46,957 nucleotides of DNA from Methylocystis sp. (GTDB lineage Bacteria > Pseudomonadota > Alphaproteobacteria > Rhizobiales > Beijerinckiaceae), in the NCBI GenBank assembly GCA_022843525.1, contig JALHNR010000002.1, positions 1 through 46,957 of the forward strand. Direction: 5' to 3'. Shown here piece by piece: positions 6,908 to 38,808 of this stretch (positions are counted from its first letter, which is position 1; each line of letters starts with the position of its first letter). The notes beneath the pieces are model-generated. The model searched no databases. It saw nothing but the letters and a program-made list of their open reading frames with translations, and was not told the DNA's origin. A program made the position numbers and the translations under genes.

Positions 6908-7504
6908 TTGATGCCCATTCCAACATTCACGATCGACGGTGTTCTGCCGCCCTATGTCGGACCAGACGGTCCTGGCGGCGCTGCCGAAGACATGTCGCCG
7001 TACTCAGTCTCTGCGCTTGAGGTTGTGGCTTCTTTAGGATTGACTGAGCAGCGGCGGGCGATCCTTGGCGGATGGCTCAGTCATCGCGCCGCCTTGCGCG
7101 GCATTGGTTTCGATCGAGGATTTCAATGGCTCGACGGGAGTTTCGTTGAGAACAAAGATCCGCAAGATCTCGATGTGGTGACGTTCCTCCACCGGCCGAT
7201 AGGTATAAATGACCGGAACGAGTTGGCGGGGCTGATGAGAGCCAACCTGAATCTTTTTGCTCGGCATCACGTCAGAGCGACATTTCATCTCGACTTTTTC
7301 GCGGCCGATCTAGATGGGACAAGTGAGACCCTCGTGAATGTAACGCGTTACTGGCTCGGACTGTTCTCGCATCGTCGCGGCGACGATCTCTGGAAGGGGA
7401 TGCTCCAGGTCAGACTTGAGGACACCTCAGATGATATGGCCGCGCTTGCTGCGCTGGGCTCTAGCCCGGTCCTGACAGGCGTCGCTGGAGGAACCAACCC
7501 ATGA
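6908..7504 (+). CDS. DUF6932-type nucleotidyltransferase-like protein
   Basis: A 198-aa protein with the minimal polymerase-beta-type nucleotidyltransferase signature. WLDGSFVE places Gly-Ser at residues 77-78, and the acidic pair DLD is at 87-89. The arrangement matches proteins annotated as DUF6932. It overlaps the following gene by 4 bp (ATGA), so the pair is translationally coupled. By analogy with MNT-type systems it could modify a partner or RNA, but no activity is established for this family that I know of. Codon choice and ATT/AAT use are less GC-biased than the backbone, which suggests separate acquisition. Confidence 0.65.
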   Translation: MMPIPTFTIDGVLPPYVGPDGPGGAAEDMSPYSVSALEVVASLGLTEQRRAILGGWLSHRAALRGIGFDRGFQWLDGSFVENKDPQDLDVVTFLHRPIGINDRNELAGLMRANLNLFARHHVRATFHLDFFAADLDGTSETLVNVTRYWLGLFSHRRGDDLWKGMLQVRLEDTSDDMAALAALGSSPVLTGVAGGTNP

Positions 7505-8439
7505 GCACCCTGCGTAAGCTCGAGCGCGACTTCGTCCACGCGGATATGGCCGCCTTATCAGGTCTACTAGCGCAACTGGGCGATGAGGACGTGATGGCTC
7601 GCCTAGGGCTCGAAGCGCGCCTTGAGGAACTTCAGCAGACGATTGCCCAACTGGACCCAACCAAGGATGAGCTGACAGCTTCGGCCGCGCTGTTCTTCGG
7701 TGGTCGTCCTGTCATCGGCGCGCGCGGGATAGAAAGCGAATTCGCGGGTGCAGCGGTCACCAAGTTTCAAGACATTGTCGCGAAGGTTCTTGCTCACGAG
7801 ACCGGCGGCCTTGGTCAACGTGGGATCGTTCCCAACAAGGGCGCGTCGACCCTGCACATCACGAACATCGTGCGTGGCTCGTTCGGCTTCCTGATGGAGG
7901 AGGTTCGACCGCAGCAGCAAATGATGGAAACTCCACTCAAGGCCGCCGTCGACGAAGCCACCAAACTTCTCGACGCTTTTGGCGAGTCCGATGAAGAGCA
8001 GTTCCGCTCGGCTGTCGAGACCATCGATCAAAGAGTGCTGGGAACGGCACGCGAGTTCTTTGACCTCATGCGTCAGAGCGGCGCAACGCTTCGCCTCGTC
8101 GCGGGCGAAACAGATCGAAGCTTCGGAGCCGAAGCGGTCGCCCGCGCCGCCGAACGCGCCACGTCGACGACGGTCGAGGATACGGATGAGACCTTACAAG
8201 GTCAGCTCGCAGGCGTGCTCCCCGACGCGCATCAGTTCGAATTCCGAGCCGGCCCTGATCGCGGAACGATACGCGGCAAAGTTGATCGGGCTCTAACAAC
8301 TGATCAACTCACGCAATTCAATCGGGACTGGGTAAATGTGGATGCGGACGCGCGAGTGCATGTAAAACGGATTTTTCGTAGCGGCGCCGTCGTCCGAGAG
8401 AACTATACGTTACTGATGTTGGCGAGACGTGGCGACTGA
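7501..8439 (+). CDS. Unknown protein, partner of the DUF6932-type gene
   Basis: I do not recognise a named domain. The 312-aa product has a helical N-terminus (residues 1-60). A conserved-looking core follows (about 60-150) with GARGIESEF and a GSFGFLMEE segment, then a helical middle and a beta-rich C-terminus (about 245-312) with DRGTIRGKV and HVKRIFRSG. No signal peptide or membrane segment is seen. The 4-bp overlap with the nucleotidyltransferase-like gene argues that they act together, as a toxin-antitoxin or two-gene defence module. Homologues are common as hypotheticals in varied bacteria, but no function can be assigned here. Confidence 0.6.
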   Translation: MSTLRKLERDFVHADMAALSGLLAQLGDEDVMARLGLEARLEELQQTIAQLDPTKDELTASAALFFGGRPVIGARGIESEFAGAAVTKFQDIVAKVLAHETGGLGQRGIVPNKGASTLHITNIVRGSFGFLMEEVRPQQQMMETPLKAAVDEATKLLDAFGESDEEQFRSAVETIDQRVLGTAREFFDLMRQSGATLRLVAGETDRSFGAEAVARAAERATSTTVEDTDETLQGQLAGVLPDAHQFEFRAGPDRGTIRGKVDRALTTDQLTQFNRDWVNVDADARVHVKRIFRSGAVVRENYTLLMLARRGD

Positions 8440-8458: not shown

Positions 8459-8788
8459 TCAGTCGCACCATTCGACACGTCCATTCTTCAACCAAAAATG
8501 AGAGTGGCAGCCTTTTTGAAGCCACACCGACGGTGAGAGGCTCGGCCGGCCCTTATTGTCAACGCTGAAATCCCAGCGCGGGGCCGCTTCAAGGATTACT
8601 AGAAGCTCAATGGTTTGACCACATCCGCAGGGACAACGCATCCCGACGCACCAATCTTCGTTGCCGTCGCGTGCAAGCACCAGATCGCGTCGTGGCAACT
8701 GGGGCAAGCTGTCGCCTTCCACGACTCGCAGATGTCGAGGCGGCGCAATGCGCGCCCAAATATTTCGCCACCAAATTGCAATGCTCAT
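8459..8788 (-). CDS. DUF6527 family zinc-binding protein
   Basis: A 109-aa protein with a Cys-rich knuckle WCVGMRCPCGCGQ (Cys 47, 52, 54, 56) and a C-terminal GCHSHFW...EWC motif (Cys94, His95, His97, Cys108). Together these could form one or two zinc sites. The GRPSLSPSVW and PRWDF stretches match the DUF6527 pattern. Its start overlaps the JAB-E1 stop by 4 bp, making it the third gene of the Ubl operon. DUF6527 genes are recurrent neighbours of predicted prokaryotic ubiquitin-like systems. A treble-clef or RING-like accessory role is suggested by the Cys/His pattern but is inference. Confidence 0.75.
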   Translation of the reverse strand: MSIAIWWRNIWARIAPPRHLRVVEGDSLPQLPRRDLVLARDGNEDWCVGMRCPCGCGQTIELLVILEAAPRWDFSVDNKGRPSLSPSVWLQKGCHSHFWLKNGRVEWCD

Positions 8789-10188
8789 CGTGAAGCTCCA
8801 ACTCGTGCCGGCCTGAGAACAGGTAATCCAAGGAGTGGTTCAAGCGCGCCGCGTCCCAGGATCGGATTCGCCGACGGAACGAAGGCCTCCTCTGCTACAC
8901 ACTCCTCCTCGCATGCCGCGAGGCTGAATTCGGTGCGGGCATAAAGATGATTCGACTCTAGTCGAAATGGGTAGGCGCGGGCGATGAACTCATTCACACA
9001 GGCTGCGGCCGCACGCATGTTCAATGTGATGACTGCCGGCGCTTCTTCGATCAGCCCTTTGATATACCCAGCTTCGCGCTCCTGTTGATGCGCTTCCGGC
9101 GCCGCCCGCTGGAGATACGCTGCTCGGAGGCTCTCTGGCGTATAAACTCCTCGATCTTGAAGCGAGGATCGCCCCGGCTGCACATAGTCGATGCGACCGC
9201 ATACGTCGGCGATGGCGGCGCGCGCGCTTCCTTTACGGGTGGGAATTACAACGCCGACATCGAGAAGCGGAATGAGAAACGCCGCAGCAAGAAGGTCCGC
9301 AATCTGTCGCGCTTCGAGCGTGTCGACGCAGCAGAAAAGCACGTCGCTTTGGCTTGCCGCGAGCACCGCCTCGCGCGTAAGAACCGAGGCCGGAACAGCC
9401 TCGGCAACTCCGTCGCCCCTGTAGCCTGCGACCGCGTCCGCAAACATCTCCACCTTTAGCCGGCGAGCATCAGCATCGCTGAGCTTGGAATTCAAGATGC
9501 GATTGAGATTGCGATGTTCGATGCGATCGAAGTCGATCAATTTGATGTGTCCGAAACCGAGACGACAGAGTTGCTCGGCAACAACTGAGCCCGTGCCCGA
9601 TACACCGATTATCGCTGCGGACAAGCGACCGAGTTCGTCAACCATCCCGCTGGTGAATGCGACCGGCCGGCGTGATGAACGGGTCAATCTGGCATCGGCC
9701 TCCCACCAGTAGCTTAAATCGTGATTGGCGACCGTCACGAGATCCACTGGTTTCGCAATGAGATCAGCCTCGTAAATGCGGGCCATGATCGCCCCACTCG
9801 GAATCATGATCGCCGAGCCGTGCAGATCGCCAAATGCGTTGAACACGCAGGGCAACACGTGCTGATCGCTTTCGTCATCCAATTCCGAAAAGGCGAATAG
9901 CCCGCCCGGGTGTGAATGGATCAGAACCAATGCGAGGCGCTCTGACTCGCCATGATCTATCGCTTCTTCCATATACGCGCCCGGCCAGGTGATCGCGTCT
10001 CCTTCCCTGCGCTGGCTGGCTTCATGCGGAATGAGAACGACATCCCGCACGAGCAAGCGCAGCCTCGGTCCCGGCGTTCTTGCGCACAGCAGGATCGCAG
10101 CTGCTTCGAGCCCATCTCCGGGGAAGAGATGGGCCTGGATGCGTTCGTGCAGGACGCCGCTGATGGCTAGCGTCGTCTCCGGGATCAC
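8785..10188 (-). CDS. JAB deubiquitinase-E1 (ThiF) fusion protein
   Basis: A 467-aa fusion of a JAB/MPN isopeptidase and an E1-like adenylating enzyme. The JAB half (about 1-165) keeps the JAMM set: Glu28, HSHPGG with His91 and His93, Ser101 and Asp104. The ThiF/MoeB half (about 185-410) has the nucleotide loop GVSGTGS (195-201), LIDFD (218-221) and NLNR (227-230). Its Cys residues include ones in FCCVDT, DVCGR and CEEEC; I cannot name the catalytic one. The start is GTG, overlapping the Ubl-E2 stop by 4 bp. The combination implies both activation of a ubiquitin-like protein and its processing or removal. Confidence 0.9.
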   Translation of the reverse strand: MIPETTLAISGVLHERIQAHLFPGDGLEAAAILLCARTPGPRLRLLVRDVVLIPHEASQRREGDAITWPGAYMEEAIDHGESERLALVLIHSHPGGLFAFSELDDESDQHVLPCVFNAFGDLHGSAIMIPSGAIMARIYEADLIAKPVDLVTVANHDLSYWWEADARLTRSSRRPVAFTSGMVDELGRLSAAIIGVSGTGSVVAEQLCRLGFGHIKLIDFDRIEHRNLNRILNSKLSDADARRLKVEMFADAVAGYRGDGVAEAVPASVLTREAVLAASQSDVLFCCVDTLEARQIADLLAAAFLIPLLDVGVVIPTRKGSARAAIADVCGRIDYVQPGRSSLQDRGVYTPESLRAAYLQRAAPEAHQQEREAGYIKGLIEEAPAVITLNMRAAAACVNEFIARAYPFRLESNHLYARTEFSLAACEEECVAEEAFVPSANPILGRGALEPLLGLPVLRPARVGASR

Positions 10189-11300
10189 TCGCCAACCTCT
10201 TTTGCCAGGGCTGATTCGACGAGCGCGAGATGCGTCACGACATTGTCAGTTGAGGGGTTCCACGGCGATTCTGGGCCGCGATGACGCGACCAGCCGTTGA
10301 ACGGCACGCCGACAATTGTCGCCGAGACATGGGTGCACTCGATAACACGACCCGACGCGAGCGTTAGCGGCGGATAGGTATAGAACATATCGATCTGCGC
10401 CCCGGGATAAGTAGGCGGGATCTCTAGCGCAAGCTGCGTCCACGTCGTCGTGAAGCCGACGGGAACAGGGAATTGGTGAATGAGGAGCCATCGGCGGCCT
10501 GCATCCATCACTGTCTCCCAGCGGGGGCCGAGGTCGTCGAGATGTGTTTCGTCAATCTCAAGGAGCGCAAAGTCACGGCGTGGCGCCGAAGGCGCTTCGC
10601 CATTGTTGACTTCCTTGGGCGTCAGCCGAAGCTTCTCGATGCCCCGGGTGCGCAAGTCGATTGTATCCGTCAGACCAACCGCGCGCTTGGGTTCGCCCTC
10701 GATCTTCAGAAAGATGTGCCAGCCCTGATTGGGGTCAAAGCCGGCCCGCGTGAGTGCGTCCCCGACCACAATCGTTGGTGTTGCCACGTCGAGGATCACG
10801 CCCTGGACATTCAGCTTCCAAGCGAGCTTGCGGCTGACAAAGGACTCAATTCCCGGCGCGTCGAGGTCCACCAGATCGTGATTGCCGATCAAGCGGTCGG
10901 GTTCGTCGGAGCGTTCTAGATAAATCGCTTTCTCGTCGGGCCTCACCCGTCCAAGCTTCCGAAGCAGTCCGCCCGACACGATTCGACATGGCCAATCGAA
11001 GCGCTCGCCGTCGATCGTCAGACGATAGCTGCGATCGCTCTCGACGATCACAAAGCGCCCCTCGCTATTGCGTAGGTCTACCGCTTCGCTGGGTCGGACG
11101 TCCTCCAGCTCACCTTCGTGAAGGATGTGAAGAACTGTCGCCTGCTGCGCTGGCTTAAAGCCCGCAGCTGCGGAGAGCTGAAAGCCCGTGGGCGTAAGGT
11201 CCTCGATCCATACTGCGCGGAACGCCAGCGTTTCGTCCGCCACTTCGATCTTGTGACGGGCCTCGCCGCGATCAAGCGCGGCCTCCGGGACATTTTCCAT
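10185..11300 (-). CDS. Multi-ubiquitin-like/E2 fusion protein
   Basis: A 371-aa polypeptide. Three beta-grasp repeats (about 15-88, 91-158, 160-228) match the multi-ubiquitin pattern. A Prok-E2_E-type domain follows (about 238-371) with IDMFYTYPPL, WSRHRG and a terminal helix. It has only two Cys: Cys105 in repeat 2 and Cys322 in the E2 part (VIECTH), the latter being the only E2 active-site candidate. There is no C-terminal Gly-Gly. I chose ATG 11300 because AGGAG lies 7 nt upstream; an upstream TTG at 11369 lies in the operator. It is first in a coupled operon with the JAB-E1 and DUF6527 genes. Ubl and conjugating enzyme are thus made as one chain. Confidence 0.85.
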   Translation of the reverse strand: MENVPEAALDRGEARHKIEVADETLAFRAVWIEDLTPTGFQLSAAAGFKPAQQATVLHILHEGELEDVRPSEAVDLRNSEGRFVIVESDRSYRLTIDGERFDWPCRIVSGGLLRKLGRVRPDEKAIYLERSDEPDRLIGNHDLVDLDAPGIESFVSRKLAWKLNVQGVILDVATPTIVVGDALTRAGFDPNQGWHIFLKIEGEPKRAVGLTDTIDLRTRGIEKLRLTPKEVNNGEAPSAPRRDFALLEIDETHLDDLGPRWETVMDAGRRWLLIHQFPVPVGFTTTWTQLALEIPPTYPGAQIDMFYTYPPLTLASGRVIECTHVSATIVGVPFNGWSRHRGPESPWNPSTDNVVTHLALVESALAKEVGE

Positions 11301-11354
11301 GGTCATCTCCTGCGTCGCCGGCACCGCGCCAGCGCTCGCTAATCTTACGGCGCG

Positions 11355-11401
11355 CGCTAAGTTCGTCAAGCATTAATTTAGCGCGCTTGACAAACTTAGC
11401 G
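11355..11401. promoter_or_regulatory. Divergent operator-promoter of the Ubl operon and XRE-ImmA pair
   Basis: Two 16-bp arms face each other: CGCTAAGTTCGTCAAG at 11355-11370 and CTTGACAAACTTAGCG at 11386-11401. They are inverted repeats with one mismatch around a 15-bp spacer. Each arm contains a TTGAC(A/G) that would serve as the -35 box of a promoter firing away from the centre. A repressor bound to both arms would therefore silence both directions. The adjacent XRE protein is the obvious candidate. -10 boxes are weak in both directions. Confidence 0.65.
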
Positions 11402-11463
11402 ATGGTGCATTACGCTCTTTGCTGCCGGACTCCATGTCTGGGAACCACAAAAAGGGAGCATCG

Positions 11464-11844
11464 ATGCCAGATGACGAAGCAATTGAAACTCCACAGGCAA
11501 TAAACCTTGGCCAATTTATAAGAAAGGCTCGGCAAGACGCTCAATTGTCGCTTCGTGATGTAGAAGAAGCGACAGGAAAGGAAGTGTCAAATGCGTATCT
11601 CAGTCAACTTGAGACTGGAAAAATCACAAAACCGTCGCCGCATATTCTCTATGCGCTATCGACCGCTCTTGGTGTTGCTTATGAATCGCTGATGGAGCGT
11701 GCGGGGTACATCGTTCCCGTCGCCAATCGTGCAGAAGGAATAAAACACGGCCGAGCCGCAACCTTCTCTATCGATAACCTCACTGCCGGCGAAGAAAATG
11801 AGCTGCTCGATTACCTCAACTACATTCGCTCCAAACGCAGGTGA
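11464..11844 (+). CDS. XRE-family regulator of the Ubl island
   Basis: A 126-aa protein with a Cro/CI-type helix-turn-helix (about residues 12-66; LSLRDVEEATG, AYLSQLETGK) and a short C-terminal tail (SIDNLTAGEENELLDYLNYI) that probably dimerises. The ATG at 11464 is preceded by AAGGGAG at a good distance. The gene lies 3 bp upstream of an ImmA/IrrE-type metallopeptidase, and opposite the Ubl-E2 operon across a large inverted repeat. The expected logic is repression by the XRE protein and relief by its peptidase partner, as in CapH-CapP and phage ImmR-ImmA pairs. This is inference from arrangement. Confidence 0.85.
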   Translation: MPDDEAIETPQAINLGQFIRKARQDAQLSLRDVEEATGKEVSNAYLSQLETGKITKPSPHILYALSTALGVAYESLMERAGYIVPVANRAEGIKHGRAATFSIDNLTAGEENELLDYLNYIRSKRR

Positions 11845-11847
11845 TCG

Positions 11848-12774
11848 ATGCGACGGCCAGACGATTCGAGTTTGACGCCTGGCCAGTTGGCCCGGGTCCG
11901 CAAAGAGGCCGAGCGTGCGCTGCGCGAAGCGGGCGCGCTCGGTGTCTTCCCAACTCCGATCGACAAAATCATGGCGGTCGCCCGTGTTCGGGAAGTCAAG
12001 GAAGACGTCCTCAATCCTGGCTTTATTGCGAAGCTTCGAGCGAAGGCAGGCCTGACTGGCCAAGCTGTCAAACGAGCTCTCAGCAAGGTCTTGGGTCTCT
12101 TTCACGCCTCTGAGGGTTTGGTCTTTTTGAGTCAATCCTTAATGGCGGTAAAGAAGCGGTTTGTGGGCTTGCATGAAGCCGGTCACGGGTTTTTGCCCTG
12201 GCAAAGACCTATGTATGCGGTTGTCGAGGATTGCGAGAAAGCGCTTGATGCCGCGACTGCCGAACTTTTCGATCGCGAGGCCAATGTTTTTGCCTCGGAA
12301 GTGCTGTTCCAACTCGATACCTTCTGCGACATGGCCGAGGGCGAGGCCTTTGAGATTTGGACGCCCGTCAATTTAGCCAAGCGCTTTCATGCGTCAAACT
12401 ATGCCGCGATTCGCCAATACGTCTCGAAAAGCCATCGCGCCTGCGCCGTGGTTGTCCTGAATATGCCTGAGCTCATCGAGGGGGATGGATTTCGCGCCAC
12501 GCTCCGACGTCCAATCCAGTCAAATAGATTCACAGAGTTATTTGGCCAGTATGGGTGGAAAGATGCCTACACACCCGACGACGATCTAGGTGCATTTATC
12601 CCGCTCGGACCCCGAAGGTCGTCGGGTAAACGCTCCATCGCACTAACTGATCGCAATGGTGACCGACATGAATGCGTCGCCGAATCTTTCTCTACCGGAC
12701 ATCAGGTTTTCATCCTTATCCATGCGGTAAAAACGTTGACCGTCACCAGAATCATTTTGCCCGCCGCAGAGTGA
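11848..12774 (+). CDS. ImmA/IrrE-family metallopeptidase of the Ubl island
   Basis: A 308-aa protein with the zinc peptidase motif HEAGH (His109, Glu110, His113) and a downstream acidic ligand in DREANVFASE (Glu144). This is the ImmA/IrrE (COG2856) pattern. The extended C-terminal region (about 190-308) may be a sensor domain; it includes AVVVLNMPEL and a beta-rich tail. It follows the XRE gene by 3 bp and is likely in one transcript. Proteins of this family cleave or displace XRE repressors after DNA damage or phage signals, so this is probably the activation switch of the Ubl operon. Direct involvement in ubiquitin-like chemistry is not indicated. Confidence 0.85.
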   Translation: MRRPDDSSLTPGQLARVRKEAERALREAGALGVFPTPIDKIMAVARVREVKEDVLNPGFIAKLRAKAGLTGQAVKRALSKVLGLFHASEGLVFLSQSLMAVKKRFVGLHEAGHGFLPWQRPMYAVVEDCEKALDAATAELFDREANVFASEVLFQLDTFCDMAEGEAFEIWTPVNLAKRFHASNYAAIRQYVSKSHRACAVVVLNMPELIEGDGFRATLRRPIQSNRFTELFGQYGWKDAYTPDDDLGAFIPLGPRRSSGKRSIALTDRNGDRHECVAESFSTGHQVFILIHAVKTLTVTRIILPAAE

Positions 12775-32037: not shown

Positions 32038-32382
32038 TTTCCGCGGACGCGCCGTGAGCACCTTAACATTCGCAGCCGTCGCCTTGGCGGAAGCGACGCC
32101 TATTGGGAGCTTCCGAAATCGTGGTTCAACGACTTCGTCGATCGCGCACTGCTGCGATACGGTAGGGTCTATATCATCCGGCCCTATCGCGAGCAGGAAG
32201 TCTGCGTGAGGGAGTGCCAGGAAGCGCGGGGCCACGAATGCCAGTGTTCCTGCATGGGGGCCAATCATGGCATGGGCAATGATGGCAATTGGTTCGAGGT
32301 CTCTGACACCTTCTCGTCGTCTGCTGACGGCCCTGTAGGGACAAATACCCGATCAGAAGCTATGTCATCGGGCAACGGATGA
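32038..32382 (+). pseudogene. Decayed gene fragment with a Cys-rich C-terminus
   Basis: A 114-codon open frame with no ATG, GTG or TTG start before its conserved-looking part; a stop (TAG) lies at 32035-32037. The product reads YWELPKSWFNDFVDRAL, then YIIRPYREQEVC. A metal-binding-like run follows (Cys-x3-Cys, then HECQCSCMGANHG). The Cys-x3-Cys...Cys-x-Cys-x-Cys-x2-Asn-His pattern is typical of a recurrent family of small hypotheticals. It is probably the 3' part of a gene whose start was lost. Its last 23 bp overlap the convergent patatin gene. Confidence 0.5.
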
Positions 32383-33394
32383 ATTTTTCGACCGCGCCAT
32401 CGAGAAAGACCCGCTCGATGTGATGCCCGGCGCCTTCGACGAGACTGCGCGCCACCATAGGCAATTCACGCACCGAGCGCTGCACGTCGTCCATTGCGAT
32501 CGGCGTGTCGCTTTCCGGTACGTCGATACGGGCGACGTTGTTCTTGCCAACCAGCAAATAGGCTTGGCCGAGGGCATTGCGCGACTGCGCGCGTGCGGCC
32601 GCATTGAAGGAGCGCATGAACGCCCAGTCTTTGATACCGCCGTTGCGCGCCCGCTCATCGACAGTGAAGGTGGCTTCGCCCGTGCCCAGGCTCAGGATGC
32701 GCACATCCTCGCGCGCAAGGTCGAAGCAGGCGAGGCCATCGACCAGGGCGTTCATCACCGGATTGTTGGCCCAGACGCCGCCATCAATCATGACGTAACC
32801 GTCGTCCTCGACACCGGGGTAGTAGGACGGGGCCGCCGTTGTGTGGAGCGCTACATGCGCAAACTTCTTGTGCCGGTCTTTCTGATAGTCTGGGTGGTGC
32901 GGCGTCTTGTAGAGGAAGGGCTCACCGTGGCGCCCTTCGAAGCTCGGGATAACAAGCCGGGTGACGGCGTCGTCGAGCACTTTGTCGCCGAAGATTCGCA
33001 GCAGTTCTTCCTTGAGGGCAGCTTGGTCGTGCTTCGGCTTGAACACCCAGCGCAGCGTCCTCGGCACCTTGCTGAGCGCGGCCGCTGGCGGAAAGATGCG
33101 CTCGCCGCGCTCCAGGTAGATGTTCAAAGCCTGTCGGGCCGTCATTCCGTGGGCAAGGGCAAGCGCGATGATGCCGCCCGTTGAGGTGCCCGCGATCATG
33201 TCGAAGTGATTGGCGATGGATGCGCCACCCAGGAAGCGGCTTTCGAGTTCGGCCAGGAAGGCTGCAGGAAAGACGCCGCGAATGCCGCCGCCGTCAATCG
33301 ACAGGATGCGGAACGGGCGGCCTTGCGGCCATGGCTGCTTGAGGCGAGCATGTTGGATCGTGCCATCCGATCGGCGCGGCGGAATATAGTTCAT
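32360..33394 (-). CDS. CBASS effector, patatin-like phospholipase (CapV-like)
   Basis: A 344-aa patatin-family lipase. The oxyanion loop is GGGIRG (35-40), the nucleophile Ser71 is in GTSTG, and the catalytic Asp204 is in IDGGVWANNP. CapV-type effectors are switched on by a cyclic oligonucleotide and degrade membrane phospholipids, killing the infected cell. I chose ATG 33394, which overlaps the E2 stop by 4 bp; the frame opens earlier but overlaps E2. It is the last gene of the CD-NTase-E2-effector operon. Confidence 0.92.
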   Translation of the reverse strand: MNYIPPRRSDGTIQHARLKQPWPQGRPFRILSIDGGGIRGVFPAAFLAELESRFLGGASIANHFDMIAGTSTGGIIALALAHGMTARQALNIYLERGERIFPPAAALSKVPRTLRWVFKPKHDQAALKEELLRIFGDKVLDDAVTRLVIPSFEGRHGEPFLYKTPHHPDYQKDRHKKFAHVALHTTAAPSYYPGVEDDGYVMIDGGVWANNPVMNALVDGLACFDLAREDVRILSLGTGEATFTVDERARNGGIKDWAFMRSFNAAARAQSRNALGQAYLLVGKNNVARIDVPESDTPIAMDDVQRSVRELPMVARSLVEGAGHHIERVFLDGAVEKFIRCPMT

Positions 33395-33843
33395 GGCGTG
33401 GTCTCCGTTGCCTCGGCCGCTTCCAATCCGGCGTGCCGTCCGCCGCCGGTCCAGCGCCCGGTCATCAGCCAAAGTTCGTAGCAGGCGAGCCAGTCGAGCG
33501 CCCAAGGAACGGTCGTGCTGGCAATAGTCATCGCCGGTGACCATTCCCGCTCGCGCGGGTCGAACAGGCAAAGTGTCGGATCCTCGGCCGGCGGATAGAC
33601 ATGGGGCAGCTGGCCCTCGGCATTTCCGGGCCGGCGGATCAACTCGGGTGAGAGCACTCGCGCCTCAGGGAAGGATCCGAGCTCGTATCGGATCTCCAGC
33701 GAGTAGCTTGCATATTGCGGCCTCACGCTTCCCACCCACCGGGCGGACTGGGCGCGGCGGTCGACACCGCGCGCAGCGAACTGCGGCCAGGTCGTTTTCA
33801 CCGCGGCGACCTGCTCGTCGATGGAGAGGATCGGCGCGATCAT
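33391..33843 (-). CDS. CBASS E2-like conjugating enzyme (type II short)
   Basis: A 150-aa E2-fold protein with the CBASS E2 signature: HVYPPAEDPTLCLFDP with His81 and candidate catalytic Cys92, then EWSPAMTIASTTVPWALDWL and TGRWTGGGRH. In short type II CBASS an E2 without E1 or JAB stands between cyclase and effector and is thought to prime the cyclase. It overlaps the cyclase stop by 1 nt (TGATG) and the effector start by 4 nt. No E1 or JAB gene is next to it; the JAB-E1 at 8.8 kb belongs to a different operon. Confidence 0.9.
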   Translation of the reverse strand: MIAPILSIDEQVAAVKTTWPQFAARGVDRRAQSARWVGSVRPQYASYSLEIRYELGSFPEARVLSPELIRRPGNAEGQLPHVYPPAEDPTLCLFDPREREWSPAMTIASTTVPWALDWLACYELWLMTGRWTGGGRHAGLEAAEATETTP

Positions 33844-35090
33844 CAGATCTTGCGCCCGAAGAAGGTGTGAGGCCGCGCCGCCGAGACCGCCGGGTTGACG
33901 GTCGACGCCGCGACCGCAGCAGCGGTAGGCAACAGCACGCCGCCGCGTCGCGTGTAGAGCTGACGCGACTGCTGGATCCGGCCACCGACGTCGGTTGCGA
34001 TCTGGTCGGCGGCATGGGTCACGACGCGGTCGCCGAAGTTGCCGCGCAAGACGTCCATCATCGTGTTTGGGAACATCGCGCCCTTGCGCATCGAGTCGAG
34101 CGAACGGACGAACTCGCGCAGATGTTCGGCGAATTCATCCTGCTGAGGAATGGATTCCGGCCAGCGGTCGGTGAAGACATCGGTCTCACAGACCGGATTG
34201 GCGACGTGCAGGAGCCGCCCATAGAGCGAGGCCTGCTCGATATCGCGGATGATCCAGCTCGCGAGACGAACGAGCATGGCGCTGAGCGACATGTTCGGCT
34301 GCGCGGCGAGTCCGGCGTAGTAGGAGAGCATCACTGACGGTGAGATGCGGCCGCTGTAGTTGACGTAGCGGATGTTGCGGAAGCGCTTCAGGAGCTGGAG
34401 GGCGAGCGTCGCAGTGTTCTTGACGACGAAATCGCACTGATCCGGGACCTCGTCGACGTCCGCGTCGGCGCGCGCCGCAAGGCCGGCATGGTCGAGCCAC
34501 CGCCGGTGGAACTCCTTCGCCATGCGCAGTTCGAGCGGCGTCCTGCTCGCATACCATTGTGCGAACCCATAGGCGTTCATGTCGACGAAGCGGTCGTCGG
34601 CTGACCGGTGCGGACCCTTGGCGTGAGTGATCAGGCTTTCGCGATCGAGCGTGCCGTGGGCGCGCAGCGACGGCGTGACGTCGAGATGCATCTTGTCGGC
34701 GTAGAACAGGGTGACGCAGCGCGTCTGCCGCAACACCCGCTGCACGGGATAATCACTGAGCGCGGATTCGAGCTCGGCCAGGATTTCGAGGGGCGTCATG
34801 CCACGGAAGCGGCCGCCGAGCTGCGAGACGATGTCGAGATCGTATTCGTCGTCGGTGCCGCGCGTCGAGATCGTGGCGTCGATCGCCATGGAGCCCTGCG
34901 GATAGAAGTGCTCGATCTGGTCGAAGAAGGCGGTCGTGACCTCGAGATGATGTCGCACCGCCTCGTAGCGCGACTTCGCCTTGTCATGCAGCGAGGGCGG
35001 CAGCTGAACGCTCAGCGCTATCTCGGCGAGGATACGGTCGAGGGGGTCATCGAAGGGATTGAGGCCGGTCGGCGCAAGCTGGATGTTCAC
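33843..35090 (-). CDS. CBASS CD-NTase (cyclic oligonucleotide synthase)
   Basis: A 415-aa cGAS/DncV-like nucleotidyltransferase. The active site is PQGSMAIDATI (Gly66-Ser67), EYDLDIV (Asp84, Asp86) and HLDVTPS (Asp137). A helical OAS-like C-terminal domain follows. The C-terminal tail ends in HTFFGRKI, the kind of exposed end that E2 enzymes act on in type II CBASS. I chose GTG 35090, with GGAG 6 nt upstream; GTG 35135 would add 15 residues. The nucleotide product cannot be told from sequence. Confidence 0.9.
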   Translation of the reverse strand: MNIQLAPTGLNPFDDPLDRILAEIALSVQLPPSLHDKAKSRYEAVRHHLEVTTAFFDQIEHFYPQGSMAIDATISTRGTDDEYDLDIVSQLGGRFRGMTPLEILAELESALSDYPVQRVLRQTRCVTLFYADKMHLDVTPSLRAHGTLDRESLITHAKGPHRSADDRFVDMNAYGFAQWYASRTPLELRMAKEFHRRWLDHAGLAARADADVDEVPDQCDFVVKNTATLALQLLKRFRNIRYVNYSGRISPSVMLSYYAGLAAQPNMSLSAMLVRLASWIIRDIEQASLYGRLLHVANPVCETDVFTDRWPESIPQQDEFAEHLREFVRSLDSMRKGAMFPNTMMDVLRGNFGDRVVTHAADQIATDVGGRIQQSRQLYTRRGGVLLPTAAAVAASTVNPAVSAARPHTFFGRKI

Positions 35091-35175
35091 ATCGATCTCC
35101 ACGGCGGGCTGGGCTGCATCTGTGCATCTCGCCACCGCCCGCGCGGTGTTCTGGATGACATGAATGTGTATACGT

Positions 35176-35242
35176 CTACTCCGAACAAGATGGGGAGCTT
35201 GAATGCGCCTGTCAAGGGTCTTAGAATATAGCTACTCCGAAC
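35176..35242. promoter_or_regulatory. Divergent control region of CBASS and XRE-ImmA
   Basis: Two direct repeats of CTACTCCGAAC (35176-35186, 35232-35242) flank a promoter facing the XRE gene: TTGAAT 35199-35204, 17-bp gap, TAGAAT 35222-35227. The repeats are candidate operators. One repeat lies on the CBASS side and could block that operon's promoter. Confidence 0.5.
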
Positions 35243-35276
35243 GCGGGCTCGCGCGTATCGAGTGGAAGGAATGGCT

Positions 35277-35597
35277 ATGAAATTTGGTGAGCGGATCAAG
35301 GACTTACGGACGAAGAAAGGTCTGACGCTCGATCAGCTTGCGCGGGATACTGGCTCGTCGAAGAGCTACATCTGGGAGCTAGAGAACAAGAATCCGCCCA
35401 GGCCGTCTGCCGAGAAGCTGTCCGCGATTGCGAGCGCCTTGGGGGTGACCGTCGACTACCTAATCGGGGCTGACATGCAGACACTCAGCGAGGCTGAGGA
35501 TACCGCATTCTTCCGGCAATATAGCGGTCTGCCGGAGGAGACCCGCCGGCAGATTCGCGAGATGGCCCGTATCCTGGACACGAAAACGCGCACATGA
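35277..35597 (+). CDS. XRE regulator beside CBASS (CapH-like)
   Basis: A 106-aa Cro/CI-type repressor (helix-turn-helix about 5-60; LTLDQLARDTGSSKSYIWELE). A C-terminal helix follows (about 75-106; FFRQYSGLPEETRRQIREMARIL). I chose ATG 35277 because AGGA lies 8 nt upstream; GTG 35262 and ATG 35271 are alternatives. It overlaps an ImmA/IrrE peptidase gene by 4 bp and is divergent from CBASS. The CapH-CapP pair, in which a peptidase cleaves the repressor after DNA damage to induce CBASS, is the closest described arrangement. Confidence 0.85.
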   Translation: MKFGERIKDLRTKKGLTLDQLARDTGSSKSYIWELENKNPPRPSAEKLSAIASALGVTVDYLIGADMQTLSEAEDTAFFRQYSGLPEETRRQIREMARILDTKTRT

Positions 35598-36517
35598 GCG
35601 AACCAAGCCGCCTCCGCCCGCTGAAGGAGGCGGCACGCATCACGCAGATGCTGGATATCGTGCTCGGAGCGGATCGCTTCGATCGCGCGCCGGTCGACGT
35701 GATTGGACTTGCCTTGGATTACTCCCGCCAGGTCGCGCCCGACAGCCCCATCCACGAGGTCGTCGAGCGCAACATCCCCGGCTGCATCGGCGCGTTGGTC
35801 TATGGGGAGGCGCGGCCGCGCCAATGGGCGATCATGTACCATGTCGGCCAGTCGGACGGACGCCGCTCGTTCACCGTCGGGCACGAGTTCGCCCACTACC
35901 TTCTGCACCTCCAGTTGATCGAGCAGTGCGGGGGGGTCGACGGCGGCATTTACTGTGACGAAAACGCGGTGGATCGTCGCGGTGGGTCCGGTATCGAGCA
36001 GGAAGCCGACGAGTTCACCGCGGCTCTGCTGATGCCGCTTCATGATTTTCGCCGACAGCAGCCGGCCAAGGCACGGGTAGATTTTGACACGCTCAGCCGC
36101 CTCGCGAAGCGCTATGGCGTGTCGTTGACTGCAGCCATCCTGCGCTGGCTCGAATACACCGAAACACGGGCGATGATGGTGGTCTCGAATGAGGGTTTTG
36201 CCCATTGGGCGAAGCCGAGTGCTCCTGCGCTAAAGTCGGGACGATTCATTAGGACGAAGCACACAGTCTACGAGCTGCCCTCGCAGGCTTTCGCTGCAAG
36301 GCGCGATTACTCCGATGGTGCGCTGACCGGCATCACGCAACAAGCTGGCGTCTGGTTTCCCGAGCCGGTGCATGAGATGTGCTTTCGCTCTGACCGATAT
36401 GACCAGGAGATCACCGTGCTGCAGCTCGAAGCAGATGGGCCGCGCTTCCAGGCGGAAGAAGAAGAGACGGACGTGTACGATCGGTTCATCAATAGCGGGC
36501 AGCTGCCGAGTCGATAG
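35594..36517 (+). CDS. ImmA/IrrE-family peptidase beside CBASS (CapP-like)
   Basis: A 307-aa zinc peptidase with HEFAH (His97, Glu98, His101) and the downstream ligand region EQEADEFTAALLMP (about 132-146). The C-terminal half (about 170-307) contains a Cys (HEMCFRSDRY) and may sense the inducing signal. It overlaps the XRE gene by 4 bp, so both are made together. Expected to cut the XRE repressor and release CBASS expression. The catalytic His-Glu-His set is intact. Confidence 0.87.
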   Translation: MSEPSRLRPLKEAARITQMLDIVLGADRFDRAPVDVIGLALDYSRQVAPDSPIHEVVERNIPGCIGALVYGEARPRQWAIMYHVGQSDGRRSFTVGHEFAHYLLHLQLIEQCGGVDGGIYCDENAVDRRGGSGIEQEADEFTAALLMPLHDFRRQQPAKARVDFDTLSRLAKRYGVSLTAAILRWLEYTETRAMMVVSNEGFAHWAKPSAPALKSGRFIRTKHTVYELPSQAFAARRDYSDGALTGITQQAGVWFPEPVHEMCFRSDRYDQEITVLQLEADGPRFQAEEEETDVYDRFINSGQLPSR

Positions 36518-36811: not shown

Positions 36812-37900
36812 ATGACCATGGAAGACCACACAATCGATGCACTTGTAGAGGATTTCGCCGCAGCGGTGGCGGAGGCTACAGGCGCTTCTCCTGAGGTCGT
36901 TCACGAGTCCGAGCCTTCGCAAGGGCGCTATCGGCCTGACGTCGTGATGGATCTGGAGCACGAGGGCGGCTCGTTCCGCCTCGTTGTCGAGGTAAAGCGA
37001 TCGCTGTTCCCCCGCGATGCCCGCGAAGCGATCTGGCAGCTCAGGAATTATCTCGCTCATGGCGAATCGGCTGGCCGTTCGGCTGTGCCCGTGCTGATGG
37101 CGGAGACGATTTCCCCAGGCGCGCGCGAACTGCTCCGCGACGAGCGCGTAGGATATTTCGATTCCAGTGGAAGCCTCTTCATACCTGCCAAAGGGTTATA
37201 CGTTCTTGTCGATCGGCCGGCGTCGAGGAAGCAGGCTCGTTCGCTCAATAATCTGTTCGTCGGCCGCCGGGGCCAAGTCCTGCACGCTGTCTGGATTCTT
37301 GGGCATGATTGGTTCGGCGTTCACCAGATCGCGCAGCGTGCCGGGGTGTCGCCCGCGACGGCATCCGAGACGTTGATCGGCATCGAGCGTCGGGAATGGG
37401 TCGAATTACGAGGGACCGGACCCTCCAAAGAACGGCGCTTGATCAACCCACGCGCTCTGCTCGACGCTTGGTCGAGCTATCAAACGTCAGTCAAACCGAA
37501 AGCCCTCCGACACTTCTACGTTAGGTCGACCACACCGCCGGATCTCCAGCGGCGGATCGATCATGCATGCGAGACACACGGCGTCTCCTATGAGTTCGCC
37601 GACATCACGGCCGGCCAGATCCATACTCCCTATTTGTCGAGCGTTTCGCAGGTTTTCTGCCGAATTCCCGCCGGAGGGGGCATGCAGGCGATGCTGGCTT
37701 CGATCGACGCCCGGCCCGTGAGGGAGGGTTGGAATCTTGGCGTTCACGAGATCGCCTCCGACGGTGACCTGAGATTTCGTCAGAGGATCGGTGACCTGTG
37801 GGTCGCCGATGCTCTCCAGACGTATCTCGACCTTCTCCAGGCCGGCGGGCGCGCCAAAGAACTGGCGCAACATCTGCGGGCCGAGAAGCTGGAGGCGTGA
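36812..37900 (+). CDS. AbiEi-like antitoxin/regulator
   Basis: A 362-aa protein. The N-terminal part (about 25-130: RPDVVMDLEHEGGSFRLVVE then VKRSLFPRDARE) looks like a restriction-endonuclease-like fold. A winged-helix region (about 155-215: GVHQIAQRAGVSPATASETL) follows, then a C-terminal domain of the kind seen in AbiEi-family antitoxins. Together with the following nucleotidyltransferase it resembles type IV toxin-antitoxin AbiE systems, where AbiEi represses the operon and counters the toxin. The nuclease-like N-terminus is an unusual addition compared with classical AbiEi. ATG 36812 or 36818 may be used. Confidence 0.75.
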   Translation: MTMEDHTIDALVEDFAAAVAEATGASPEVVHESEPSQGRYRPDVVMDLEHEGGSFRLVVEVKRSLFPRDAREAIWQLRNYLAHGESAGRSAVPVLMAETISPGARELLRDERVGYFDSSGSLFIPAKGLYVLVDRPASRKQARSLNNLFVGRRGQVLHAVWILGHDWFGVHQIAQRAGVSPATASETLIGIERREWVELRGTGPSKERRLINPRALLDAWSSYQTSVKPKALRHFYVRSTTPPDLQRRIDHACETHGVSYEFADITAGQIHTPYLSSVSQVFCRIPAGGGMQAMLASIDARPVREGWNLGVHEIASDGDLRFRQRIGDLWVADALQTYLDLLQAGGRAKELAQHLRAEKLEA

Positions 37901-38808
37901 TGGCAAAGGCGCAGTTCCTTGTCGACTACAGCGAAGACGTGACGCGGGACTGCGAGCGTGTGCTCGTCACGCTGTTCAGCGGCCTCGGGCCATGGCGTGA
38001 CTCGGTATTCCTGGTTGGTGGATTGACTCCCCGCTACCTTGTTACGGCGCGCCCGCCGGAGGTTCCGGCACATGCCGGCACCGGAGATATCGACGTCGTC
38101 GTCGACCTTGCCGTCTTGGCCGACACCGAGGCTTATCGCTCGCTCGAAGAGAACCTTAAGCGCATGGGCTTCGAGCGCGCCGAGAACGACAGGGGCGTCA
38201 AGGTCAATTGGCGCTGGAAGACCAAGACGGAGCACGGTGTCACGGTCGTTCTCGAATTCCTGGCTGACGACCCCAAACTGAAAGGCGGCGCATTACAGGA
38301 GCTTCCGACCGATGGAAATATTTCGGCGGTCAACATTCCTCATGCATCGCTCGTCTTCGATCTGCACGATCGGATGGAGGTGACAGCAGATCTGCTGGGT
38401 CAAAAAGGCCGAGCCACCGAAACCATTCCTTACGCCAACATCGTGTCGTTCACCTGCCTGAAGGCCTTTGCGTTCGATCACCGTCGTGAAGGCAAGGACG
38501 CCCATGACCTCGCATATTGTCTCGAGCATGGAGAAGGCGGGTTGGAGGGCGCCATCGCGAAATTCAAGGATGCGATGGCCGACAAGCACAGTGACATCAT
38601 CGGTGCGGCACTCGCGATCCTGCTGAAACGCTTTTGCGATCCCGAGCCCGATGAAGGCTATCTCCGCGAGGGGCCCGTCGCGGCCGCCCGATTTGAGATC
38701 GAAGGGGATGATGGGGATCCTGAAATCCGCGAACGGCGGGCGCTTCGGCAGCGCGCCGTGAACGACGTGATCTCGCGGCTGCTCAGCGAGCTGAGTGTTG
38801 GGGGATAA
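37900..38808 (+). CDS. AbiEii-like nucleotidyltransferase toxin
   Basis: A 302-aa protein. Its nucleotidyltransferase motif is VGGLTPRYL (Gly40-Gly41) followed by GTGDIDVVVD (Asp63, Asp65), and a third acidic residue probably lies in VVLEFL. This matches AbiEii/AbiGii-type toxins, which modify tRNA or other targets with nucleotides. It starts inside the upstream stop codon (TGATG) with GGAGG before it, so the pair is tightly coupled. No truncation is seen. Confidence 0.75.
   Translation: MAKAQFLVDYSEDVTRDCERVLVTLFSGLGPWRDSVFLVGGLTPRYLVTARPPEVPAHAGTGDIDVVVDLAVLADTEAYRSLEENLKRMGFERAENDRGVKVNWRWKTKTEHGVTVVLEFLADDPKLKGGALQELPTDGNISAVNIPHASLVFDLHDRMEVTADLLGQKGRATETIPYANIVSFTCLKAFAFDHRREGKDAHDLAYCLEHGEGGLEGAIAKFKDAMADKHSDIIGAALAILLKRFCDPEPDEGYLREGPVAAARFEIEGDDGDPEIRERRALRQRAVNDVISRLLSELSVGG

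What the first reader, a model, noticed from the sequence alone, without database searches (positions are those of the whole stretch)
8459..11300. Ubiquitin-like operon with Ubl repeats and E2 in one polypeptide, plus JAB-E1 and DUF6527
Three genes with 4-bp overlaps encode a full predicted conjugation-deconjugation pathway. The first holds three beta-grasp repeats and an E2 domain in one 371-aa chain, the second fuses a JAMM isopeptidase to an E1. The Ubl has no C-terminal Gly-Gly, so it is unclear what is activated. Either the JAB releases internal units, or the chain acts without classical conjugation. Multi-ubiquitin (6E-type), Bil and Bub systems are known in outline. This architecture beside an XRE-protease switch on an ICE has not, to my knowledge, been tested.
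Basis: partly seen in the sequence, partly recalled or inferred. Interest (0 to 1): 0.85.

Follow-up and report, generated by a model that had tools for sequence, protein, structure and literature searches.

The report
Ubiquitin-like Bub operon with damage switch
A mobile element in an unnamed bacterium carries a complete, already described kind of bacterial ubiquitin-like protein-tagging operon (Bub), next to a DNA-damage-type repressor pair for which a conserved operator site is predicted here.

Summary
The genes are real and correctly read: a Bub (bacterial ubiquitination-like) operon of the fused BubAB type, bubAB 11300-10185, bubCD 10188-8785 and a DUF6527 gene 8788-8459, with 4-bp overlaps. 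Solved Citrobacter chains match nearly the whole of both large proteins: BubA E 3e-80, BubB 5e-31, BubCD 7e-150. Cys322 is a poor catalytic candidate (Cys in 5 of 31 rows, window included); E2 Ser338 and E1 Tyr375 are each invariant in 31 of 31. DUF6527 keeps Ser87 and His97 in every aligned copy. The XRE-protease pair is CapH-CapP, a pairing already published for Bub. I predict its operator: a half-site GCTAAGTNNNTCAAGC present upstream of bub in 9 of 9 loci with a close CapH, in a recognisable inverted pair in 6 of 9, and only there in the host genome. I found no published CapH site, but could read few papers. Targets and purpose are unknown; phage protection by Bub is not shown (PMC13373217). 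New member of a known kind; modest interest.

The parts
10599..11300 (-). bubA part of bubAB: three beta-grasp (Multi_ubiq) units, residues 1-234, ending VNNG234
   Evidence: Pfam PF14452 3 stretches; PDB 9d59 E 3e-80; model and Z 15.8 to 9d5a
10185..10598 (-). bubB part of bubAB: E2-like domain, residues 235-371; invariant W337 S338; C322 variable
   Evidence: Pfam PF14462 6e-33; PDB 9eav_D 5e-31; columns
10593..10604 (-). codons for N233 G234 | E235 A236: inferred processing junction
   Evidence: N233 and G234 invariant in the 15 rows of A1; PDB BubA ends and BubB begins here
8785..10188 (-). bubCD: JAMM peptidase (E28 H91 H93 S101 D104) fused to an E1 (G195-S201, R230, K245, D289, Y375)
   Evidence: Pfam; PDB 9ea4 E 7e-150; columns
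8459..8788 (-). DUF6527 protein (putative BubE): invariant Ser87 and His97, Cys cluster C52/C56/C94
   Evidence: Pfam PF20137 3e-23; alignments
11355..11371 (.). operator arm 1 (CGCTAAGTTCGTCAAGC); contains the -35 TTGACG of the bub promoter on the minus strand
11385..11401 (.). operator arm 2 (GCTTGACAAACTTAGCG)
11342..11369 (-). sigma-70-like promoter TTGACG-16-TAAGAT, inferred to drive bub
   Evidence: 1 found, 0.1 expected in shuffles
11419..11844 (+). capH-like XRE repressor (true start may be the in-frame ATG at 11464)
   Evidence: HTH_3 8e-11; PADLOC capH 2e-7
11848..12774 (+). capP-like M78/ImmA metallopeptidase, HEAGH at residue 109
   Evidence: Pfam PF06114 3e-6; PADLOC capP 1e-13
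6908..8439 (+). convergent two-gene unit (DUF6932 and a 312-aa protein) that accompanies the same bub cassette on a Bradyrhizobium plasmid; role unknown

Best explanation
It is a Bub operon of the fused BubAB type under CapH-CapP control. Inferred course: CapH sits on the half-sites at 11355-11401 and blocks the bub promoter. DNA damage activates CapP, which cuts CapH, and the operon is expressed. BubAB is made as one chain and cut after Gly234 by the JAMM part of BubCD or by the DUF6527 protein, giving a triple-Ubl BubA with a free C-terminal Gly and a separate E2, BubB. The E1 part of BubCD adenylates Gly234 and passes BubA through hydroxyl (oxyester) rather than cysteine intermediates, most likely E1 Tyr375 and E2 Ser338, to unknown targets. 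JAMM and DUF6527 can remove it. Shown here: gene content, homology, the conserved junction Gly, absence of an invariant catalytic Cys, the conserved half-site. Inferred from homologues: the reactions and the damage response. Unknown: the target and the benefit.
For: PDB matches over nearly the full chains; 53% identity of BubCD to a Citrobacter freundii plasmid copy. N233-G234 invariant in the 15 rows of A1, with the same split point in PDB chains; PDB 9eae numbers BubB 242-355, continuing BubA 1-229, so the Citrobacter gene is most likely a fusion too. JAMM and ThiF residues invariant in 31 of 31; the one invariant Cys of BubCD is C287, which lines up with the CTDN position of ThiF and MoeB; no invariant Cys in E2. 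PDB 9eav_A carries Tyr-to-Phe at the Tyr375 position. A DUF6527 hit in 40 of 40 bubCD loci examined, though only E 1e-4 in L049; the profile was built from 29 rows of such loci, and L097 was itself found through DUF6527. CapH-CapP. Operator. CapW or CapH+CapP beside 219 of 544 Bub operons in print.
Against: No assay was possible. The oxyester chemistry and the name BubE are recalled from the abstract of Ye et al. (10.1038/s41594-025-01696-1), which is not held. Tyr375 and Ser338 are candidates from conservation only; an invariant residue may be structural. Thr323 is invariant in the 15 rows of A1 and could be the E2 residue instead. E1 column 342 is Cys in 11 of 31 rows, all more distant from the window; it looks like a metal-site CxxC (recalled from MoeB) but was not tested. 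Which peptidase cuts the fusion is open: DUF6527 is also kept where BubA already ends in Gly. CapP matches only modestly (Pfam 3e-6, PADLOC 1e-13). The operator is a clear pair in 6 of 9 loci only.
Confidence: 0.86

Rival explanations
1. A Cys-dependent (thioester) ubiquitin-like system of the Bil type, with Cys322 as the E2 nucleophile.
For: The window E2 has a Cys in the stretch before the conserved WSRH motif; four other rows have Cys at the same column.
Against: 26 of 31 rows lack it; the four nearest relatives have Ser (three) and Arg. The window E1 has no Cys at or next to Tyr375, and the only invariant Cys of the BubCD alignment is C287. The closest solved chains are Bub, not Bil, for E1 and E2.
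Confidence: 0.05
2. BubAB stays uncut and works as a scaffold or filament: the Ubl triple chain polymerises (Citrobacter BubA is a filament in PDB 9d59) and presents the E2.
For: Homologous filament structures exist; the fusion is kept in the 15 rows of A1 and in six more rows.
Against: Conserved Gly at the junction, a low-confidence linker at 231-250 of the model, split BubA genes ending exactly at ...TEG, and PDB constructs ending at the same Gly.
Confidence: 0.07
3. The pathway serves general stress or element maintenance rather than anti-phage defence. This concerns the purpose only and is compatible with the mechanism above.
For: Bub has not been shown to protect against phage, and the authors name stress response as an alternative (PMC13373217).
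Against: It shares an element with a CBASS, and CapH+CapP is described as a regulator of immune operons such as CBASS (PMC13373217).
Confidence: 0.35

Closest known systems
Citrobacter Bub system (PDB 9d59, 9ea4, 9ea5, 9ea8, 9eae, 9eav; Ye et al. 2026, Gong et al. 2025, both seen as citations only)
   Same: BubAB split after ...VNNG, BubCD as JAMM-E1 fusion; 53% identity to a C. freundii plasmid BubCD, followed by a small third gene that matches DUF6527.
   Different: The two Citrobacter plasmid copies fetched lie behind a two-gene unit that looks like CapK/CapS (label inferred from PMC13373217); the window has CapH-CapP. Window E2 has Cys322 where the solved BubB has Ala.
Bradyrhizobium septentrionale plasmid pBs5S5b locus (L039)
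   Same: Same order CapP-CapH-BubAB-BubCD-DUF6527 plus the convergent 312-aa/DUF6932 pair.
   Different: On a conjugative plasmid; 62.5% (BubAB) and 64.5% (BubCD) identity.
Second Bub-type locus of the same assembly, contig C53 (L026)
   Same: Multi_ubiq, Prok-E2_E, JAB-ThiF, DUF6527.
   Different: Separate bubA (one Ubl, ends TTEG) and bubB genes; E1 has a CLLC motif; DUF6527 copy lacks the Cys cluster but keeps Ser and His.
Bil (BilABCD)
   Same: Multi-Ubl BilA (PDB 8u38) is a weaker match, E 5e-17. The Bil operon content (Ubl, E2, E1, JAB) is recalled.
   Different: E1 and E2 here match Bub structures and lack an invariant catalytic Cys; JAB is fused to E1.

Membership tests
Bub (bacterial ubiquitination-like) | Multi-Ubl BubA ending in Gly, here fused to BubB | tested here: met
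Bub (bacterial ubiquitination-like) | Prok-E2_E type E2 without an invariant Cys | tested here: met
   Pfam 6e-33; Cys in 5 of 31, Ser338 in 31 of 31
Bub (bacterial ubiquitination-like) | BubCD: JAMM fused to E1, residues intact | tested here: met
   E 7e-150 to 9ea4; E28 H91 H93 S101 D104 D289 31 of 31
Bub (bacterial ubiquitination-like) | Small protein with Ser-His pair (BubE, recalled) | tested here: inconclusive
   DUF6527 with invariant Ser87 and His97 (27 rows; the two rows left out keep them); that DUF6527 is the published BubE could not be checked; no PDB relative
Bub (bacterial ubiquitination-like) | Oxyester E1 and E2 intermediates; conjugation | not testable with these tools
   needs biochemistry
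CapH-CapP regulator pair | XRE repressor followed by M78/ImmA peptidase with HExxH, divergent from the controlled operon | tested here: met
   half-site
CapH-CapP regulator pair | ssDNA-triggered cleavage of CapH by CapP | not testable with these tools
   stated for the family in PMC13373217
Bil (BilABCD) | E2 with conserved catalytic Cys (recalled) | tested here: not met
   Cys322 column Cys in 5 of 31
Integrative and conjugative or mobilisable element | Recombinase, relaxase and coupling protein on one segment | tested here: met
   serine recombinase 39221, DUF3363 relaxase-like 12800, TraG-like 4638, T2SSE-family ATPase 2793
Integrative and conjugative or mobilisable element | Defined ends and attachment sites | not tested
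   not sought

The most novel reading that the evidence does not exclude
The 16-bp half-site GCTAAGTNNNTCAAGC, typically as an inverted pair 28-29 bp apart over the bub -35 element, is the CapH operator of a whole branch of CapH-CapP-controlled Bub operons. It makes bub the only target of this repressor in its genome, and it is shared by fused and split Bub operons whose repressors are close relatives.
Probability: 0.65. Interest if true: 0.4.

Novelty: new member of a known kind. Interest (0 to 1): 0.33.

Why it matters
It gives a likely answer to what is activated (Gly234), corrects the proposed catalytic residues before anyone mutates the wrong ones, ties DUF6527 to JAB/E1-like operons beyond those with Prok-E2_E, and supplies a concrete operator with which to test how a bacterial ubiquitin-like pathway is switched on. 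What Bub tags and why is a live open question, and a fused, CapH-controlled system is a usable test case.

Tried and rejected
Cys322 as nucleophile: rejected from conservation. DUF6527 as the dedicated protease of the BubAB fusion: not supported as its only role, since it is also present beside split BubA that already ends in Gly (L026, L032, L033, L050, L051). A profile alignment of the E1 region with E. coli ThiF and MoeB places the ATP-binding part well but is unreliable around Tyr375. By eye from that output, Tyr375 lies 9 residues before the invariant Pro384, while ThiF C184 and MoeB C187 lie 8 before a Pro; the catalytic role of those two Cys is recalled. AlphaFold2 of DUF6527 was poor (pLDDT 56) and was not searched. 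A viral-contig search for BubAB found no relative; one for DUF6527 found 7 loci, of which one (L097) holds bubAB, bubCD and DUF6527. None of seven literature searches listed the primary Bub papers, and three look-ups failed.

Rows dropped or not used. E2 table: 33 rows, two without letters at the columns (L021, and an L027 row that was the Ubl frame, included by my error). BubCD alignment (31 rows): L024, L029 and L037 left out (partial or divided frames), L008 as near-identical to L007, and loci fetched later not added. A1 (15 rows) holds the fused relatives nearest the window; fused but more distant L028, L030, L031, L036, L047 and L049 were left out of it and are. A2 leaves out L026 and L037. 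Before the operator count, overlapping short loci were dropped; the near-identical L007-L009 stayed in.
Full report
What is there. The minus strand of 11300-8459 holds three genes with 4-bp overlaps. The first codes for three Multi_ubiq units and a Prok-E2_E domain in one 371-aa chain, the second for a JAMM domain fused to a ThiF-type E1 (467 aa), the third for a 109-aa DUF6527 protein. The longer TTG-started frame is unlikely: the promoter-like site would start transcription downstream of that TTG, and AGGAG lies 6 bases before the ATG at 11300.

Identity. Sequence searches of the PDB give Citrobacter BubA (9d59, E 3e-80, residues 37-257 of the 394-aa frame), BubB (9eav, 5e-31, residues 256-394) and BubCD (9ea4, 7e-150, residues 7-458). 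An AlphaFold2 model built from the window and five relatives has mean pLDDT 71 and pTM 0.45. Aligned to PDB chains it gives 9d5a at Z 15.8 (212 residues, rmsd 7.7) and 9eae chain C (BubB) at Z 11.9 (102 residues, rmsd 2.8); the tool warns that most rows cover only residues 12-91. The system is therefore Bub. The primary papers (Ye et al. 2026, 10.1038/s41594-025-01696-1; Gong et al. 2025, 10.1016/j.str.2025.03.011) are not held; I saw them only in the reference list of PMC13373217. That Bub works through oxyesters and that Bub operons encode a Ser-His protease is recalled from an abstract.

What is activated. In the 15 fused relatives nearest the window N233 and G234 are invariant and the next residue is Glu or Asp. 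In six more distant fused rows the Gly stands at the same column without the Asn. In the PDB the BubA chains end ...DVNNG and a BubB chain begins EEPRATRRDF; 9eae numbers BubB 242-355, continuing BubA 1-229, so the solved Citrobacter protein is most likely a natural fusion too. Split BubA genes end ...DQTEG or ...TTEG, in three cases with two or three further residues. The model has a low-confidence linker at 231-250. The activated residue is thus most likely Gly234 after one cut. Who cuts is open. A DUF6527 hit accompanies bubCD in all 40 loci examined, but it is weak in L049 (E 1e-4), where the frame looks disrupted; the profile was built from 29 such rows, and L097 was itself fetched through DUF6527. 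DUF6527 also stands beside BubA genes that need no cut (L026, L032, L033, L050, L051), so it probably has another role, such as removing BubA from targets.

Catalytic residues. In 31 E2 rows with letters, the Cys322 column holds Cys in 5 (window included), the Thr323 column Thr in 20 (including all 15 rows of A1), and W337 and S338 are invariant. In 31 BubCD rows the JAMM residues E28, H91, H93, S101 and D104 and the E1 residues G195, G200, R230, K245 and D289 are invariant. The only invariant Cys is C287, which lines up with the CTDN position of ThiF and MoeB. Against a simple 'no Cys' reading, column 342 is Cys in 11 of 31 rows, all more distant from the window, in a CxxC that resembles the metal site of MoeB (recalled). 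Y375 is invariant, and PDB 9eav_A differs from 9ea5_A by Tyr-to-Phe there. I propose Tyr375 and Ser338 as the likeliest oxyester residues, with Thr323 as alternative; this is inference.

DUF6527. Ser87 and His97 are invariant in 27 rows, in a partly overlapping set of 12, and in the two rows left out of the first. The Cys cluster is not universal: L026 lacks it. In 397 genomes of the order, DUF6527 occurs in 45 and Prok-E2_E in 16. Of the 30 best DUF6527 matches that were given loci, 27 have a JAB/E1-like hit within about 1.5 kb; among loci from genomes without a Prok-E2_E match this is 14 of 17, with weaker hits (E 6e-8 to 2e-15). DUF6527 is thus tied to a wider set of JAB/E1-like operons. 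It has no PDB relative by sequence (one chance-level hit, none).

Control region. The divergent XRE gene and M78 peptidase match PADLOC capH (2e-7) and capP (1e-13). Between them and bubAB lies an inverted repeat, arms 11355-11371 and 11385-11401, 16 of 17 paired. One arm contains the -35 of the one promoter-like site found. The half-site GCTAAGTNNNTCAAGC with at most one mismatch occurs in the capH-bub intergenic region of 8 of 8 loci with a close CapH (phmmer E below 1e-30: window, L006, L032, L033, L039, L049, L050, L088) and nowhere else in 545,938 bases of 112 loci. Loci with only weak CapH-like hits (L036, L043) lack it. In eight loci fetched afterwards, the one with a close CapH (L106, E 9e-38) has the pair at 29-bp spacing; the seven others, including three with weak CapH-like hits, have none at that threshold. 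A pair 28-29 bp apart is recognisable in 6 of the 9 (window, L006, L039, L049, L106, and L088 with two mismatches in one arm); in L032, L033 and L050 the second arm is degenerate or absent. In the window's whole genome (4.19 Mb) the two arms are the only matches at one mismatch, against 8 for the reversed control pattern. In an alignment of the nine intergenic regions nearly all conserved positions lie in this block. The loci are related, so they are not independent, and L106 resembles L049; CapH binding is inferred. Two searches for CapH papers gave listings only, of which I opened passages of one paper (PMC13373217); Lau et al. 2022 was not read, so that the site is unpublished is not established.

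Known and unknown. PMC13373217 (passages read) states that 219 of 544 Bub operons stand beside CapW or CapH+CapP, that CapP is activated by ssDNA and cleaves CapH, and that Bub has not been shown to protect against phage. The arrangement beside an XRE-protease pair is thus already described. In 72,556 plasmid records, 168 hold a BubAB relative and 149 a BubCD relative; none of 50,697 phage records matches BubCD. The Bradyrhizobium plasmid locus L039 repeats the whole cassette, including the convergent DUF6932/312-aa pair.

Setting. The window carries a TraG-like coupling protein, a DUF3363 relaxase-like protein, RepA, a ParB-like protein and a serine recombinase, then phosphoribulokinase and transketolase genes that look chromosomal. 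It also carries a CBASS cyclase and phospholipase with their own XRE and CapP. A second, split Bub-type locus lies on contig C53; the assembly has 6.2% estimated contamination, so C53 may not be from the same organism.

Verdict. A real, complete and ordinary member of a recently described kind. The additions here are the likely junction and residues for this member, the wider link of DUF6527, and the predicted CapH operator.

Noticed in passing
window 32360-36517: A CBASS: CD-NTase 33843-35135 (PADLOC cyclase 7e-177), patatin-like phospholipase 32360-33571, and a second XRE (35262-35597) plus CapP (35594-36517, PADLOC capP 2e-70); no bub half-site at up to two mismatches there.
   Followed up: partly
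L026 3642-7695 (contig C53 of the same assembly): A second complete Bub-type locus with separate bubA and bubB, a DUF2188 gene and another XRE/M78 pair; its DUF6527 copy lost the Cys cluster but keeps Ser and His.
   Followed up: partly
window 6908-8439: A DUF6932 protein (PADLOC PDC-M63A, 2e-10) and a 312-aa protein, convergent to bub and found beside the same cassette in L039; possibly a linked defence unit.
   Followed up: partly
L052-L076, 14 loci from genomes without a Prok-E2_E match: DUF6527 beside more distant JAB/E1-like proteins: a wider group of operons that might use other E2-like partners.
   Followed up: no
L049 after 7084: The DUF6527 frame beside a fused bubAB looks disrupted (hit only 1e-4), which might mean that it is dispensable there, or a sequencing error.
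   Followed up: no
L097: A contig classed as viral (IMG/VR) carries bubAB, bubCD and DUF6527, although no phage record matched BubCD.
   Followed up: no
window 37798-38808: Weak AbiEii-like nucleotidyltransferase (Pfam 0.0015, below its cut-off) between the CBASS and the serine recombinase.
   Followed up: no
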